Below are positions 12,065 through 38,600 of a DNA stretch of 64,000 bases, piece by piece. Made by a program: the position numbers and the translations under genes. Positions within the stretch are counted from its first letter, which is position 1. The number at the start of each line of letters is the position of its first letter. The notes under the pieces are model-generated. The model made no database searches, had not been told where the DNA came from, and saw only the letters and a list, made by a program, of their open reading frames with translations. Where the stretch lies: contig JAIRQO010000048.1 in the NCBI GenBank assembly GCA_031256435.1, forward strand, positions 62,001 to 126,000, in the 5' to 3' direction. This DNA comes from Cellulomonadaceae bacterium. Lineage in GTDB: Bacteria; Actinomycetota; Actinomycetes; Actinomycetales; Cellulomonadaceae.

Positions 12065-12125
12065 GCCGCCATACTAAGTGGTGGGTGTGATATGAAAACG
12101 GAACCCCGCACGTCACCACCGTTCT

Positions 12126-12285
12126 GGGCCCGGATGACATTGCCCTTCCACTTCGTGGGCCCGGATGACACACCTATAGAGCGGCTTTGAGTGAGTGAAC
12201 CGGGCCCACAGCCCCGGGAAACACACTCAACCGGGCCCACAACCCCAGGAGATACACTCAACCGGGCCCACAACACAGGGAGGAC
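12126..12285. repeat. Family A GGGCCCGGAT/CCGGGCCCAC repeat cluster
   Basis: cgggcccggatgac copies and three units of (c)aaccgggcccacaNcccNgg. Confidence 0.8.
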
Positions 12286-15002: not shown

Positions 15003-15890
15003 TCACATGGGCTCAGGATCGTCCTTAACGGGCGGCATCAGCGCGTGAGCTTCGTCCCGCTTCTCGACGTAGTAGGGTTTGGCGTCTTCCCACCTGTTGA
15101 AACCGTCGCGCCAGGTTGCTCTGAACTGCTCGGCTTCCTCAAGTAGCGACTTGACGTGTTCAGCCAGAGGGATGCCGTGCACGCGACCAGGTTCAATGCC
15201 GATCAGCAAGAGAGGACACTCACCGCCTCCACCGAGGTTGACCTTTGGCAACAACTTGCTCCAATGCGTGGTTGATTGACCATATTTAAAGCCTCCATCC
15301 TTCGAGCGGATCGTAGGTGCGATGACCTCTTGAAGTTTGGGCCCGCGCGTGACGATCACGCCCACAGCAATCGCACCTTCCCGGTGCAGTGCCTGGAAAT
15401 TGTTGAGGTCACGGTCAAAGAACGGGTCCTTGTTATTCCATTCCATCTCGACGGCGATACCGGGAAACGGGTCCGCAAGGGAGCCTTTCCCAAACATGTC
15501 AATTTCGTGGCCACGTACGCGATTACGCCGCATCGGCGAACTGTCGAAGCCGACAGCCTTCTCGATGGTGATGTTCTGCTTACCCCACATGGCCTCGCCA
15601 GTTGGCGCGCGCATGGAGCCTAGTGAGTCATCGAAACGCTTGACGAAAACGGTTCGACCGCCACCACCAGAGCGGAGTTCATCCAAGGTCGGGTAAAAAT
15701 CGGCGAGGGCCGATACCAGGTCATCAAAGCGACTGCGGAATGACTCACGCAGGATCACATCGGCGTATCGTGTGGCACCGAACACGTAGCCATCAGGCCA
15801 TCCTTTGGTGGCCACGGGCCTCACCTCGCCGGCGGGGTCGGCGGCATTGCCGGAGTAATCAGGCTCAACGTGTGCGGTTCTAGAGGTCAC
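15003..15890 (-). CDS. Type II restriction endonuclease, BglII/BstYI-like
   Basis: GIAVEMEWNNKDPFFDRDLNNF catalytic-like segment; divergent from a DNA methyltransferase gene. Confidence 0.75.
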   Translation of the reverse strand: MTSRTAHVEPDYSGNAADPAGEVRPVATKGWPDGYVFGATRYADVILRESFRSRFDDLVSALADFYPTLDELRSGGGGRTVFVKRFDDSLGSMRAPTGEAMWGKQNITIEKAVGFDSSPMRRNRVRGHEIDMFGKGSLADPFPGIAVEMEWNNKDPFFDRDLNNFQALHREGAIAVGVIVTRGPKLQEVIAPTIRSKDGGFKYGQSTTHWSKLLPKVNLGGGGECPLLLIGIEPGRVHGIPLAEHVKSLLEEAEQFRATWRDGFNRWEDAKPYYVEKRDEAHALMPPVKDDPEPM

Positions 15891-15965
15891 AGGTCGATCA
15901 TACCGACCCCTTCCGCCACGCTACGGATTCAGAACGCTAGCCCGCGACACGCTGATGAGCACTGA

Positions 15966-15991
15966 TAGATCTAAATTCGAAAATTAGATCT
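15966..15991. promoter_or_regulatory. Inverted pair of AGATCT sites in the R-M intergenic region
   Basis: tAGATCTAAattcgaaaaTTAGATCT at 15967-15972 and 15986-15991. Confidence 0.6.
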
Positions 15992-16011
15992 TTGTACGGT
16001 ACTGTTTGGGC

Positions 16012-16896
16012 ATGTCAGTCACAGCCCTCGAAGCGCCACCACGAACCGGACAACGCGCAGCGCCGCTCCGGCCCGTTCTGGCGCCTCCACCGTTGCCGAC
16101 GGTGGACAGCGGCTTTCAAACGGTGCTGGCTGATCCTCCATGGCGGTTCGCAAACCGTACCGGCAAGGTGGCACCTGAGCACCGACGACTAGATCGCTAT
16201 TCCACAATGACACTCGACGACATTTGCGGGATTCCAGTCAACGACGTCACGGCTCCAAATGCTCACCTGTACCTCTGGGTGCCGAATGCTCTCCTTGTTG
16301 ACGGCTTGAAGGTGATGGAGTCTTGGGGGTTCAGGTACATCTCGAATGTGGTCTGGGCCAAACGTCGAAAGGATGGCGGACCCGACGGACGCGGGGTCGG
16401 TTTCTACTTCCGCAACGTGACTGAGTTAATTTTGTTTGGCGTTAAGGGGTCAATGCGGACACTCCCTCCTGCAAGATCACAGGTCAACATGATCGAAACT
16501 CGCAAACGTGAGCACTCGCGCAAGCCGGATGAGCAGTACGACCTTATCGAGCGTTGCTCCCCAGGCCCATACCTAGAAATGTTTGCTCGCTATCCACAAG
16601 AGGGGTGGATGGCGTGGGGTGATGAGTCCTCAGACGAAGTGCAGCCACGAGGCCGAACGCACCGTGGTTACGCAGGCGGTGGCATCGAAGCGCCTTCCTT
16701 CCCCACGTTAGAGAGTCATGAACGAATGGCAACCGCGACGCAGCGCCGCATTGCCAGGGTGCTGAAGGAGCAGTACGAGGCCGGTGCCAGCGTTCGTGAT
16801 CTCGTGAACGAAACGGACTACTCCATCACACGAGTCCGGCGACTGCTTGATGTAGCTGGTACCGAGATGCGTATGCGTGGACGGGCAGCAGCCTGA
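16012..16896 (+). CDS. MT-A70 family adenine DNA methyltransferase with C-terminal HTH domain
   Basis: ADPPWRF motif; C-terminus LKEQYEAGASVRDLVNETDYSITRVRRLLDVAGTEMRMRG. Confidence 0.85.
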   Translation: MSVTALEAPPRTGQRAAPLRPVLAPPPLPTVDSGFQTVLADPPWRFANRTGKVAPEHRRLDRYSTMTLDDICGIPVNDVTAPNAHLYLWVPNALLVDGLKVMESWGFRYISNVVWAKRRKDGGPDGRGVGFYFRNVTELILFGVKGSMRTLPPARSQVNMIETRKREHSRKPDEQYDLIERCSPGPYLEMFARYPQEGWMAWGDESSDEVQPRGRTHRGYAGGGIEAPSFPTLESHERMATATQRRIARVLKEQYEAGASVRDLVNETDYSITRVRRLLDVAGTEMRMRGRAAA

Positions 16897-17035: not shown

Positions 17036-18181
17036 TCAAGCAATATTGAGGCGCGCAAAATCCTGTAGTTCGGTGGCGTACAGGGCTGGCTGCTCGCGCG
17101 GGGCAAAGTGGCCGCCTCGCGCTGGGGTGGTGAAAGACACCAGATGGGTGGTGCGGGCCACCCACTCGCGCGGTGGATGCGTGATGTCACCAGAAAAAAT
17201 GGAGAAGCCCGAGGGCGTGGTGACGTAGCGGTCCAGTTGGGCGCGCGGAATCGCGGCGTTGGCCCGGTACATCCTGACCGAGGCGCCAATGTTCCCGGAA
17301 AACCAGAAGTCGCTGAGCAGGTCCAGCACGTCCTCACGCGAATACACCGTCCACGGATCGCCTCCGCAATCCGACCAGGAAACCAACTTCTCCCCCACCC
17401 ACGCAGCGAGTCCTGCGGGGGAATCCGTCAGGCCCACCGCCAGCGTGGCTGGCTTGGTGGAGTGCATGGCGGCGTACCCCGCCTCGGTGTAACCCCAAGC
17501 TACGGAGGCGGCCATCCAGTCCCGCTCGGGCGGAGTGAGATCGGCAGGATCACCGCCGTAATACGGCAGACCAGCATCCATGCGGTGGACTCCCAATACG
17601 CGGTCCGGGAAGTCCAGCGCCAGGTATCGGGCCACATGGGAGCCGATGTCCCCGCCCGCCACCATGAACTGCTCGTGACCCAGCGATGTCATGAGGTCAG
17701 CCCAGAGCGCGGCCACCTGCCGCGAGTTGAGCGCGGTGTCTCCTGCGGGCGACCACCCAAATCCCGGCATGTCCGGGACCACCACGTCAAAGGCCGGAGT
17801 TCCTGCGGCCAGCAACGGGGCCACGGTCCGATACCGCCATGCGGAATCCGGCCAGCCATGGGCGAGTAGCAGCGGCGTTGCCGTCAGATCCGCTTGAGGG
17901 GAGGCGTGCAGGTAGTGAATCTCGTGGCCTTCGACGATGGTGACCTGTCCACCCTGCTTGGAAAGCCGGGTGCGGTACGCGTCGAAGTCGAACTCTTCTG
18001 CCCAATACTGTAGTAACTCCTGCAGCCAGGTGGGGTTGACACCTTCGTCGTCGGAAATATCACTGGCGGGCTGCGGTAGACGAGCGGAGCGGAGACGAGT
18101 GCGCAGATCCTCCACGGCTGCGTCGCTGAACGGAGGGGTGAACGGGACGGACTGGCTCGGGCTCATCGTGCGACTCCTCAC
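17036..18181 (-). CDS. Epoxide hydrolase (EHN family alpha/beta hydrolase)
   Basis: VDDLR-like N-terminal domain, HGWPDSAWRY, VPDMPGFGWS, GGDIGSHVARYLALD. Confidence 0.88.
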   Translation of the reverse strand: MRSRTMSPSQSVPFTPPFSDAAVEDLRTRLRSARLPQPASDISDDEGVNPTWLQELLQYWAEEFDFDAYRTRLSKQGGQVTIVEGHEIHYLHASPQADLTATPLLLAHGWPDSAWRYRTVAPLLAAGTPAFDVVVPDMPGFGWSPAGDTALNSRQVAALWADLMTSLGHEQFMVAGGDIGSHVARYLALDFPDRVLGVHRMDAGLPYYGGDPADLTPPERDWMAASVAWGYTEAGYAAMHSTKPATLAVGLTDSPAGLAAWVGEKLVSWSDCGGDPWTVYSREDVLDLLSDFWFSGNIGASVRMYRANAAIPRAQLDRYVTTPSGFSIFSGDITHPPREWVARTTHLVSFTTPARGGHFAPREQPALYATELQDFARLNIA

Positions 18182-19824
18182 AGCGCGTCTCCCACCAGTT
18201 CACTCCCAAACAGGGGCGTGGAGCCGGAATCCGCCAGGTGCTCGGGAATCTCGATGGGGTAATCCCCAGTGAAGCAAGCCGTACACAACTCGTTGGCCGC
18301 GCGGCCGGTGGCGGCAATCATCCCGTTGAGCGAGATGTAGCCGAGCGAATCCGCGCCGATGGACTCGCACACCTCGTTGACCTGCAGACTGCCTCCGATG
18401 AGTTCGGCACGCGAAGCAAAATCAATCCCGTAGAAGCACGGCCACACCACTGGTGGAGAGGAAATGCGGACGTGAACCTCCGCAGCCCCTGCCTCGCGCA
18501 ACATGCGAACCAGCGCGCGTTGGGTGTTGCCGCGCACAATGGAATCATCCACCACAACAATGCGTTGCCCGGAAATCAGTTCCCGCACGGGGTTCAGTTT
18601 GAGGCGAATGCCCTGCTGCCGCAGCGTGTCCGTGGGCTGAATGAAGGTGCGCCCCACGTAGGCGTTTTTGGTCAGGCCCTGTTGGAAAGGCAGGCCCGAG
18701 GCTTCAGCGTAACCCACGGCGGCTGGGGTTCCCGAATCCGGGGTGGGCATCACAAAATCGGCCTCCACAGGATGCTCGTGAGCAAGGCGCCGGCCCATTT
18801 CCAGGCGAGAACTGATGACGGCTTGGCCATCAATCTGGGTGTCCGGGCGAGCCAGGTACACGTGTTCAAAGACGCATCCGGCGCGGGTTGGTGTGGGGTT
18901 GGGGGTGTGTGTGGGGCCGAATTCGGCGACAGTTGTGGGCCCTGATGAGAGTGATTCTGTGGGTGCGAGGTCCGTTGTGGGCCCGGATGGCAGTGCTCCG
19001 ATTTCGATGGCCGTTGTGGGCCCGGATGGGAGTGCTGGTTCTTGGACGGCGCAGGCGCGCGGGTGCGAACGCAACCCGGCCTCATTGATGATGAGCAACT
19101 CGCCGGGTGCCACATCACGCACGTAGGACGCACCAATGATATCCAGTGCAGGCGTTTCCGAGGCCACCACCCAACCTCGCTCCAACCTGCCGAGAACCAG
19201 GGGGCGCACACCGTACGGATCGCGCGCGGCGTACAGCGTGGACTCGTCCATGAACACCAGCGAGAACGCGCCGCGAAGGTGCGGAAGAACTTCCAGCACC
19301 GTTTCTTCCAGATTGTGGCCCGGATCGCCTTCCAGGAGTGCCGTGATCAACGCGGTGTCGGCCGTGTTGCCGCGCGCCAACTCCCCCGCACGTTTGGGGC
19401 CGTACCGTTCTGCGACGAGGCGCAAGAGCGCGCCCGTGTTGGTGAGGTTGCCGTTGTGCGTCAAGGCAATGGTGCCCGAGTCCGTTGGGCCCAGGATCGG
19501 CTGGGCGTTCTCCCAGGTGGTGGACCCCGCCGTGGAGTATCGCGTATGGCCCACGGCAATGTGGCCGCGCAGGGATTCGAGAGCAGATTCGTCGAACACT
19601 TGCGTGACCAAGCCCATGTCCTTGAACACGAGGATGCGCTGGCCGTCACTGGTGGCGATGCCAGCGCTTTCGTGGCCGCGATGTTGCAGCGTGTGCAGGC
19701 CAAAATACGTCAGGTTGGAGACTTCCTCGCCGGGCGCCCAGACCCCGAACACGCCACACATGAGCCGAGTGTCCCACACTGTGGGCGGGGTGCAGGCGCC
19801 GTTGGCTCGCGGCAACTGAGCCAT
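18178..19824 (-). CDS. purF: Amidophosphoribosyltransferase with repeat-derived internal insertion
   Basis: MCGVFGVW (possible alternative start 19761), LQHRGHESAGIA, VDDSIVRGNTQRALVRMLREAGA. Confidence 0.95.
   Translation of the reverse strand: MAQLPRANGACTPPTVWDTRLMCGVFGVWAPGEEVSNLTYFGLHTLQHRGHESAGIATSDGQRILVFKDMGLVTQVFDESALESLRGHIAVGHTRYSTAGSTTWENAQPILGPTDSGTIALTHNGNLTNTGALLRLVAERYGPKRAGELARGNTADTALITALLEGDPGHNLEETVLEVLPHLRGAFSLVFMDESTLYAARDPYGVRPLVLGRLERGWVVASETPALDIIGASYVRDVAPGELLIINEAGLRSHPRACAVQEPALPSGPTTAIEIGALPSGPTTDLAPTESLSSGPTTVAEFGPTHTPNPTPTRAGCVFEHVYLARPDTQIDGQAVISSRLEMGRRLAHEHPVEADFVMPTPDSGTPAAVGYAEASGLPFQQGLTKNAYVGRTFIQPTDTLRQQGIRLKLNPVRELISGQRIVVVDDSIVRGNTQRALVRMLREAGAAEVHVRISSPPVVWPCFYGIDFASRAELIGGSLQVNEVCESIGADSLGYISLNGMIAATGRAANELCTACFTGDYPIEIPEHLADSGSTPLFGSELVGDAL
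18885..19045. repeat. Three family A units inside purF
   Basis: gttgtgggccc(t/g)gatg copies; encode ALPSGPTTAIEIG / ALPSGPTTDLAPTE / SLSSGPTTVAEFG. Confidence 0.85.
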
Positions 19825-20034
19825 AGGGTCATTCCTGAACGTTGGCTGGGGGCGGGGGGCTGGACAGGTTCGCTCAGGGGCTGGATGCAGAAATCGCCGT
19901 TGTGCTTCGGAATTGCGGCCGTGGGGGCCTTGCGCCGCTGATATCAGCAGCATTTGGGTTGTTGTGCTTCCAAATTGCGGTCTGCGGTCCCTGCAAAGTA
20001 TTGGAGCGCAGCGAAGAACTTTGTGGGGTAAAGG

Positions 20035-20107
20035 AGCCGCCCTGGGGAATCGAACCCCAGACCTATTCATTACGAGTGAATCGCTCTGCCGACTGAGCTA
20101 GGGCGGC
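20035..20107 (-). tRNA. tRNA-Thr (anticodon CGT)
   Basis: GCCGCCC acceptor pairs with GGGCGGC; loop CTCGTAA; GGTTCGATTCC T-arm. Confidence 0.92.
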
Positions 20108-20188: not shown

Positions 20189-20490
20189 GTTGTGGGCCCG
20201 GTTCCCTCACTCAAAGGCGCTTATTGAGTGGTTCATCCGGGCCCACGACGAGAATCAGGTGAGTAATCCGGGCCCACGAGACCACCCACGCACAGCAATC
20301 CGGGCCCACGACGAGGGAAACGCACTCCATCCGGACCCACGGCAGATCACATGGAAGCCATCCGGACCCAGGACGTCACCCATGTCGCATGGCAACGCAG
20401 TTGGCAACACGGGTGACAACGCAGTAATCCGGGCCCACGAGACCACCCACGCGCAGCAATCCGGGCCCACGGCGAGAATCAAGCAAGCCA
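20189..20490. repeat. Family A repeat cluster
   Basis: Repeated aatccgggcccacgaNgaN units and a long palindrome starting gtgggcccggttccctcactcaaaggcgct. Confidence 0.85.
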
Positions 20491-21681: not shown

Positions 21682-23238
21682 GTGACCTTCCATCTGTTTG
21701 ACACCGCAACGCGCACCGTGACCCCGTTCCAGCCGCTCACCCCCGGCAAAGTGGGGATTTACGTGTGCGGCGCCACCGTCCAGAGCGCCCCACACATTGG
21801 GCACTTGCGGCCGTCCGTGGCCTTTGACATCCTGCGCAGGTGGCTCACGCGCTCCGGCCTTGAGGTCACGCTGATCAGGAATATTACGGATATTGATGAC
21901 AAAATCCTGGCCAAATCTGAGGCCGCTGGGGTGCCGTGGTGGGCGCACGCTGCCGGAATTGAGCGGCTGTTCACCGCTGCCTATGATGCCCTCGGCGTCA
22001 TCCCGCCCACGTATGAACCGCGCGCCACCCAGCACGTCACGCAGATGGTGGAACTCATGCAACGGCTCATCGATGCAGGTCACGCGTATGCCACAAGCCC
22101 GGGGAACGTGTGGTTTGACGTCCCGAGTTGGCCCGCGTACGGCGAGTTGACGGGGCAGCGTCTGGAGGATCTTTCTTCCGACGACGATGCTGCTTCCGAG
22201 AAGCACTCGCCCCATGACTTTGCGTTGTGGAAAGCGCCGAAGGACACCGAGCCAGTAACGGCCTCCTGGCCCACGCCGTGGGGCCGTGGACGCCCCGGAT
22301 GGCACTTGGAATGCTCCGCCATGGCGCAGCGGTATTTGGGAGACACCTTTGACATTCACGGCGGTGGCTTGGACCTCCGCTTCCCGCACCATGAAAACGA
22401 GCAGGCACAATCCCGCGCTGCCGGATTCGGGTTTGCTCAACGGTGGATGCACACCGCGTGGATCACGGCTTCCGGTGCCAAGATGAGCAAATCCCTGGGG
22501 AACGGGCTGCTGGCCTCGGACGTGTTGGCCGCTGCTCCCCCTGCCGTGGTGCGCTATGCGATTGCTGCGGTGCAATACCGCTCCATGCTGGAGTGGTCAC
22601 CGGGAACCTTGGCCGAGGCCGGGGCCGCCTGGGATCGCATCACCGGATTTGTGACGCGGGCGAGTGAGCAGGGTGCTCCGGGTGCGTTGGGCGGACCGGG
22701 TGCGTCGGTTGAGCCGGGCGGGCCGGGGGCTGCGGTGGAGCTGGGTACGTCGGTTGAGCCGGGCGCGCTGGGCGAGGCCGTCACGTCGGTTGAGCAGGGC
22801 GCTACGAGCGCCCGTGACGAAACCACGAGCCAGACAACTCCAGGCCTCGCCGCTGTCACCCTCCCTGCCGCATTTGTTGAGGCGATGGATGACGATCTCA
22901 ACACACCGGGCGCCTTGGCGGTGATTCACGAGACGGTTCGTGCGGGGAACACCAAACTCGCGGCGCGCCAGAATGCCTCCGAGGAGTTACTGGCCGTCCG
23001 CGCCATGCTGGATGTCTTTGGCCTGGACCCCCTAGACCCGCACTGGGCGCACTCGGGCGGGGCGGATTCTGCGTCGGACCAAGCATTACAGGCTCTTGTT
23101 GCTGCGGAACTTGATGCCCGCGCTGAAGCCCGTGCTGCTAAAGATTGGGCCACCGCTGACGCCGTTCGGAACCGACTGACGGCGGCGGGCATCACTATTG
23201 AGGACACCCCCGCGGGTGCCCGCTGGGAGTTGACGTAG
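21682..23238 (+). CDS. cysS: Cysteinyl-tRNA synthetase with in-frame repetitive insertion
   Basis: [38 protein letters not shown] start inferred. Confidence 0.94.
22788..22824. repeat. Family C palindromic repeat inside cysS
   Basis: ggttgagcagggcgctacgagcgcccgtgacgaaacc. Confidence 0.7.
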
Positions 23239-38469: not shown

Positions 38470-38600
38470 GCCGCCGTGGGCCAGGATCACCCACCTACCT
38501 ATCGTCGTGGGCCCGGATCACCCACTCAAAGGCGCTCTTTAGGTGAGCCATCCGGGCCCACAACGGAAGAACACGAACCCATCCGGGCCCAGAACGCGCG
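38470..38600. repeat. Family A repeat cluster
   Basis: gtgggcccggatcacccactcaaaggcgctctttaggtgagccatccgggcccacaacg palindrome plus partial copies. Confidence 0.85.

What the first reader, a model, noticed from the sequence alone, without database searches (positions are those of the whole stretch)
18885..19045. purF contains three in-frame copies of an intergenic palindromic repeat (family A)
Between the glutaminase half and the segment RAGCVFEHVYLARPD, PurF carries ALPSGPTTAIEIG-ALPSGPTTDLAPTE-SLSSGPTTVAEFGPTHTPNPTPT. The DNA units are gttgtgggcccggatg, the core also found in intergenic clusters at 12126-12285, 20189-20490 and 38470-38600. Actinobacterial PurF normally goes almost directly into the GC[VI]FE[YH]VY motif here, so this looks like repeat invasion of an essential purine enzyme.
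Basis: partly seen in the sequence, partly recalled or inferred. Interest (0 to 1): 0.75.

Follow-up and report, generated by a model that had tools for sequence, protein, structure and literature searches.

The report
Dispersed DNA repeat inside purine enzyme
A short DNA repeat found scattered through this one actinobacterial genome also sits, in the correct reading frame, inside a loop of the purine-synthesis enzyme PurF (and of at least one and probably three other proteins); such repeat-decorated proteins were known mainly from Rickettsia and other proteobacteria, so this is a new case of a known kind of event.

Summary
PurF (window 18178-19824, -) has a net 53-aa in-frame insertion just before GCVFE. 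The segment is 20 aa in all 83 other PurFs compared, including a second PurF in this genome, and 73 aa here. It holds three in-phase copies of GTGGGCCCGGAT (two exact, one with a mismatch), whose flanks also match the dispersed repeat. That repeat forms intergenic arrays of fixed geometry: direct copies every 31 bp around a dyad with core starts 43 bp apart. There are 31 dyads in this genome, none in 221 other family genomes or 397 others from the phylum. The invasion is not limited to PurF: an acyltransferase carries a whole dyad array in frame, and two further ORFs carry direct copies. Non-coding spacing is 31 bp; coding spacings are multiples of 3 (apart from the acyltransferase's dyad). 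One correction: this PurF is a duplicate. A second PurF, without the insert, sits beside purM, so "essential" is unproven. Most likely an RPE-like/intragenic-REP-like repeat inserted and was kept as a disordered linker. The units lack the stem-loop of known REPs and no Y1 transposase was found, so membership of those families is not claimed. New variant of a known kind; moderate interest.

The parts
18178..19824 (-). purF1, amidophosphoribosyltransferase, 548 aa (the start may instead be the Met just before the catalytic Cys)
   Evidence: Translation; Pfam GATase_6/GATase_7 above cut-off; PDB matches 1gph, 1ao0
18886..19062 (-). Insert region: residues 255-313 (59 aa) in place of about 6 aa in other PurFs; net +53 aa (159 bp)
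   Evidence: Loop length 20 aa in 83/83 others, 73 aa here; AF2 residues 263-311 pLDDT < 50, coil
18935..18946 (+). Repeat core copy, 1 mismatch (GTGGGCCCTGAT)
   Evidence: flank match to array unit P=0.015
18977..18988 (+). Repeat core copy, exact; read as PSGPT on the coding strand
   Evidence: flank P=0.004
19016..19027 (+). Repeat core copy, exact; read as PSGPT on the coding strand
   Evidence: flank P=0.004
12124..12271 (.). Intergenic array: ++ then --- at 31-bp spacing, dyad core starts 43 bp apart
20192..20470 (.). Intergenic array between tRNA-Thr and rlmB: one + core, dyad, seven - cores
38476..38592 (.). Intergenic array: ++ dyad --
20033..20107 (-). tRNA-Thr (CGT); purF1 lies on its 3' side
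   Evidence: ARAGORN

Best explanation
A lineage-private dispersed DNA repeat (12-bp core in a 31-bp unit, arranged as dyad arrays) has entered coding sequences of this genome, including purF1. In purF1, one or more array units entered the codons of the surface loop joining the glutaminase and phosphoribosyltransferase domains and grew to three direct copies. Only a frame-preserving, stop-free state was kept, so the copies now lie 39 and 42 bp apart rather than 31. The result is a Pro/Ser/Thr/Gly-rich disordered linker that PurF probably tolerates. Shown: the insertion, its uniqueness among the compared PurFs, its repeat identity, frame keeping, and a full array in another gene. Inferred: the order of events, neutrality, and mobility of the repeat. 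Unknown: the mobilising enzyme.
For: Clean 53-aa insertion against 83 length-invariant PurFs. Two exact cores and one near-exact, whose 12 flanking bases also fit the array unit profile (P 0.004, 0.004, 0.015), while most isolated chance cores elsewhere do not fit. An acyltransferase gene carries an entire dyad array in frame (loop of 124 aa against 49-53 aa in five congeners and 53-83 aa in other relatives aligned over it), giving a second filled/empty site comparison. A luciferase-like ORF reads the same PSGPT frame and a surface-type protein carries TCC-type copies. Non-coding spacing is 31 bp in 76 pairs, while coding spacings are 30, 39, 42, 45, 75 and 84, all multiples of 3. Insert codons are rare ones fixed by the repeat (CCA 9% of Pro, ACA 6% of Thr). 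Spacers with 4 or fewer differences between different arrays number 19 against about 0.8 expected, so units have been copied between loci.
Against: No dyad and no 31-bp spacing inside purF1, so direct descent from a whole array is not shown there. No target-site duplication could be tested because relatives are too diverged. No Y1/RAYT transposase was found; other transposase classes were not searched. The genome is a fragmented assembly (88 contigs, 93% complete) and reads could not be inspected.
Confidence: 0.8

Rival explanations
1. The PurF segment is an ordinary in-frame tandem repeat that grew from a local low-complexity Pro/Ser/Thr linker; the resemblance to the intergenic core is coincidence or weak convergence.
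For: The genome shows many in-CDS tandem repeats with periods that are multiples of 3, and CysS has an unrelated ~57-aa low-complexity insert. PurF spacings are 39 and 42, not 31.
Against: About 7e-5 exact cores are expected by chance in 159 bp. Flanks outside the core also match the array unit. Rare codons are used that the core dictates. A complete array sits in another gene.
Confidence: 0.1
2. The copies in purF1 are functional DNA sites for the same protein that binds the intergenic arrays, kept for regulation or chromosome organisation, with the peptide a by-product.
For: Intergenic half-sites are strongly conserved and regularly spaced: 31 bp is about 3 helical turns and 43 bp about 4 (inference). 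Half-sites vary independently rather than as compensating pairs, as protein sites would (82.9% paired observed against 84.0% shuffled).
Against: Spacing in coding copies (39, 42, 30, 45) does not keep the helical phase. No binding protein is identified. The arrays are absent from every relative checked.
Confidence: 0.1
3. Assembly artefact: repeats caused a chimeric join inside purF1.
For: Draft assembly of 88 contigs; arrays are repeats.
Against: The ORF stays open and in phase on both sides. The insert has its own sequence and spacing, not a copy of any array. The contig is 131 kb and carries other arrays.
Confidence: 0.03

Closest known systems
Rickettsia palindromic elements (RPE), and Wolbachia counterparts (PMC2229807, PMC10969869)
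   Same: Dispersed palindromic DNA present both between genes and in frame inside unrelated conserved metabolic genes; one RPE-bearing enzyme (guanylate kinase) was shown to be translated and active.
   Different: RPEs are discrete elements of about 105-150 bp with terminal inverted repeats. Here the element is an array of 31-bp units of variable number around a dyad, in a G+C-rich actinobacterium, and purF1 holds only direct units. No sequence relation was tested.
Intragenic GTAG/CGTC-tagged REPs (Di Nocera 2013, PMC3733652)
   Same: Short dispersed repeats, head-to-head dimers, clusters inside ORFs encoding 43-82 aa; CGTC families have no known transposase; many units here are preceded by CGTT/CGTC-like tetranucleotides.
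   Different: A single REP unit is a stem-loop (CGTC: 8-9 bp stem, 4-5 bp loop). Here 0 of 76 units have a stem of 8 bp or more and they fold no better than shuffled ones. REPs favour convergent/unidirectional gaps; here a rough count gives 9 divergent and 3 convergent. The CGTC families were reported from 5 phyla, none of them Actinobacteria.
MITEs (Correia/NEMIS, ERIC, RUP)
   Same: Small non-autonomous dispersed elements, sometimes fused in frame.
   Different: No terminal inverted repeats of fixed ends and no target-site duplication were shown; copy structure is modular.

Membership tests
RPE-like protein-coding palindromes | Same repeat family both intergenic and in frame within unrelated conserved genes | tested here: met
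   purF1 and an acyltransferase well supported; two further ORFs likely
RPE-like protein-coding palindromes | Inserted unit is itself palindromic | tested here: inconclusive
   Met in the acyltransferase (dyad inside the gene); not met in purF1 (direct copies only)
RPE proper (Rickettsia families) | Sequence homology to a named RPE family | not tested
   No RPE sequence was compared
GTAG/CGTC REP | Unit forms a short stem-loop (CGTC type: 8-9 bp stem) | tested here: not met
   0 of 76 units with a stem >= 8 bp; MFE equal to shuffled
GTAG/CGTC REP | Tetranucleotide tag GTAG or CGTC at one end | tested here: inconclusive
   Upstream tetranucleotide CGTT 17, CGTC 7, CATC 9 of 76
REP/BIME mobilised by RAYT | Y1 tyrosine transposase (PF01797) in the genome | tested here: not met
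   0 matches in a 93%-complete genome; control genomes positive
MITE | Terminal inverted repeats and target-site duplication | not tested
   Array ends vary; no closely related empty site available
PurF (class II amidotransferase / PRTase) | N-terminal Cys, HNGN, PRPP motif VVVDDSIVRGNT, four Cys matching Fe-S ligands | tested here: met
   C23, HNGN 123-126, D426-T434, C317, C463, C514, C517 invariant in the alignment of 41 PurFs; that these Cys are the Fe-S ligands is from knowledge of B. subtilis PurF

The most novel reading that the evidence does not exclude
A previously undescribed, lineage-private family of helically phased dyad arrays (31-bp unit, 43-bp dyad) is the site array of a chromosome-binding protein and also a source of new disordered protein segments, repeatedly exapted as in-frame linkers (PurF1, acyltransferase and others) in a fast-evolving actinobacterium.
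Probability: 0.15. Interest if true: 0.75.

Novelty: new variant of a known kind. Interest (0 to 1): 0.5.

Why it matters
Coding palindromes were described mainly in Rickettsia and Wolbachia, and intragenic REPs mainly in proteobacteria. A modular array that invades genes in an actinobacterium, with a filled gene and an uninvaded paralogue of the same enzyme in one cell, gives a natural test of whether such inserts are neutral or change enzyme behaviour, and shows how frame constraint reshapes a repeat (31 bp outside genes, multiples of 3 inside).

Tried and rejected
RNA-hairpin function: the 65-bp dyad folds well as RNA, but its two sides do not covary beyond shuffling, and the arrays show no preference for convergent gene ends (my rough count: 9 divergent, 3 convergent, 15 tandem), so a terminator is unlikely. 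Known RNA family: only tRNAs were found in five array-bearing loci. RAYT/REP mobilisation: no PF01797. Wider distribution: none in 221 family and 397 phylum genomes; no plasmid match; the viral contig scan failed and was not repeated. A fourth core copy in purF1 at 18911 was dropped because its flanks do not fit. A single hit in relative G017 at 3 mismatches was judged chance.

Full report
Observation. The window lies on contig C81 (62001-126000) of a 2.50-Mb, 88-contig genome, 93% complete. The PurF ORF at 18178-19824 (-) contains ALPSGPTTAIEIG-ALPSGPTTDLAPTE-SLSSGPTTVAEF as reported. The core GTGGGCCCGGAT is exact at 18977 and 19016 and has one mismatch at 18935, all in the same codon phase. 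About one exact core is expected in the whole genome by a first-order Markov model. At least 67 exact places exist, and 173 with up to one mismatch (reversed-pattern control 15).

The insert. Among 83 other PurF proteins the stretch from the GLRS-like motif to GCVFE is always exactly 20 residues; here it is 73. Whole-protein searches of 119 related genomes break at the same point. So 59 residues (255-313) replace about 6, a net gain of 53 aa or 159 bp. In B. subtilis PurF (1gph) the break falls between residues 225 and 232, just ahead of the Cys matching C317, which I take from general knowledge to be an Fe-S ligand. An AlphaFold2 model built on 41 PurFs has modest overall confidence (mean pLDDT 63.7). 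It leaves 263-311 as coil below pLDDT 50, between strand 250-254 and helix 319-324, which fits a disordered surface linker.

The repeat. Outside genes the core is not randomly scattered. Same-strand copies are 31 bp apart in 76 neighbouring pairs, and arrays turn around at a dyad whose two core starts are 43 bp apart. There are 31 such dyads in this genome with up to one mismatch, and none in 221 other genomes of the family, including ten congeners, or in 397 genomes drawn from the phylum. The unit extends beyond the core (CGTY before it, [GC]A[GC] after it). Two subtypes exist, GGGCCCGG and GGGTCCGG. The two sides of the dyad are each conserved but do not compensate one another (82.9% of cells paired against 84.0% when shuffled). 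This speaks for conservation of half-sites as DNA, not of an RNA stem. Spacers with 4 or fewer differences between different arrays number 19 against about 0.8 expected from column shuffles, so units have been copied between loci.

Why the PurF copies belong to this family. A profile of the 12 bases flanking the core, trained on 120 non-coding units, scores the three PurF copies at P = 0.015, 0.004 and 0.004, while most isolated single cores elsewhere score as random. The insert uses CCA and ACA codons dictated by the core although they are rare here (9% of Pro, 6% of Thr). The strongest support is another gene. An acyltransferase (Acyl_transf_3, C17:90205-91791) carries an entire array, cores on both sides of a dyad, in frame in a loop that is 124 aa here, 49-53 aa in five congeners and up to 83 aa in other relatives. 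A luciferase-like ORF (C81:40092-41412) reads the same PSGPT frame at spacings 30, 39 and 39, and a surface-type protein (C81:10445-11980) carries TCC-type copies at spacings that are multiples of 15. For these last two the coding status of the repeat region rests on the open frame and partial domain evidence only. Coding spacings are multiples of 3, apart from the acyltransferase dyad itself (43); non-coding spacings are 31. This is the expected mark of frame constraint.

The second PurF. The genome encodes another PurF on C17, next to purM, the arrangement I know as usual for purF. It lacks the insert (20-aa loop). The two copies are sisters in a tree (SH-aLRT 95, both long branches) inside the cluster of the same genus, so a lineage-specific duplication is likely, though long-branch attraction cannot be excluded. 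Of 240 near-invariant columns, PurF1 departs at 19 and PurF2 at 29. PurF2's changes include the RYSTTG loop, N126K and R207L in the glutaminase half. So the invaded copy looks at least as canonical as the uninvaded one, but which is required for purine synthesis is unknown. PurF1 sits on the 3' side of tRNA-Thr, with an epoxide hydrolase and an MT-A70 methylase nearby, which suggests it is the relocated copy.

Mechanism. Best supported: array DNA entered the purF1 coding sequence, probably as one unit or a few, and was retained in frame as a flexible linker with later in-frame duplication. How the repeat moves is unknown. There is no Y1/RAYT transposase in the assembly, and other transposases were not surveyed.

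Comparison. In-frame coding palindromes are known from Rickettsia (RPE; PMC2229807, PMC10969869), and REPs inside genes from several species, with clusters coding 43-82 aa (PMC3733652). The event is therefore of a known kind. The element is different: single units do not form the stem-loop that defines REPs (0 of 76 with a stem of 8 bp or more, folding no better than shuffled), the arrays are modular and phased, and the host is an actinobacterium. I file it as a new variant of a known kind, and do not claim membership in the RPE or REP families.

Noticed in passing
G000:C17:12414-13940 (L126:6414-7940): Second purF beside purM, without the insert and with unusual substitutions in the glutaminase half (RYAPLSA, HNGK). 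It may be a degenerating or ammonia-dependent PurF.
   Followed up: partly
G000:C17:90205-91791 (L127): Acyltransferase with a whole dyad array in frame in an inter-helix loop; loop 124 aa against about 50 in close relatives.
   Followed up: yes
G000:C81:10445-11980 (L128): Surface-type protein with TCC-type repeat units coding GSGxGAAAQVGSSHP at 45-bp steps.
   Followed up: partly
G000:C81:40092-41412 (L129): Luciferase-like ORF with four PSGPT-type repeat copies in its N-terminal part.
   Followed up: partly
window 22660-22835: CysS carries an unrelated low-complexity insert of about 57 aa relative to E. coli CysRS.
   Followed up: partly
window 5854-59800: Many tandem repeats with periods that are multiples of 3 (15, 18, 27, 33 bp), hinting at frequent in-frame expansion in coding sequence.
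   Followed up: no
G000:C81: About 9 of 31 dyads lie on this 131-kb contig, far more than its 5% share of the genome.
   Followed up: no
window 15003-16896: MT-A70 methylase with a neighbouring ORF that resembles a restriction endonuclease (from memory, not tested), close to purF1 and tRNA-Thr; possible genomic island.
   Followed up: no
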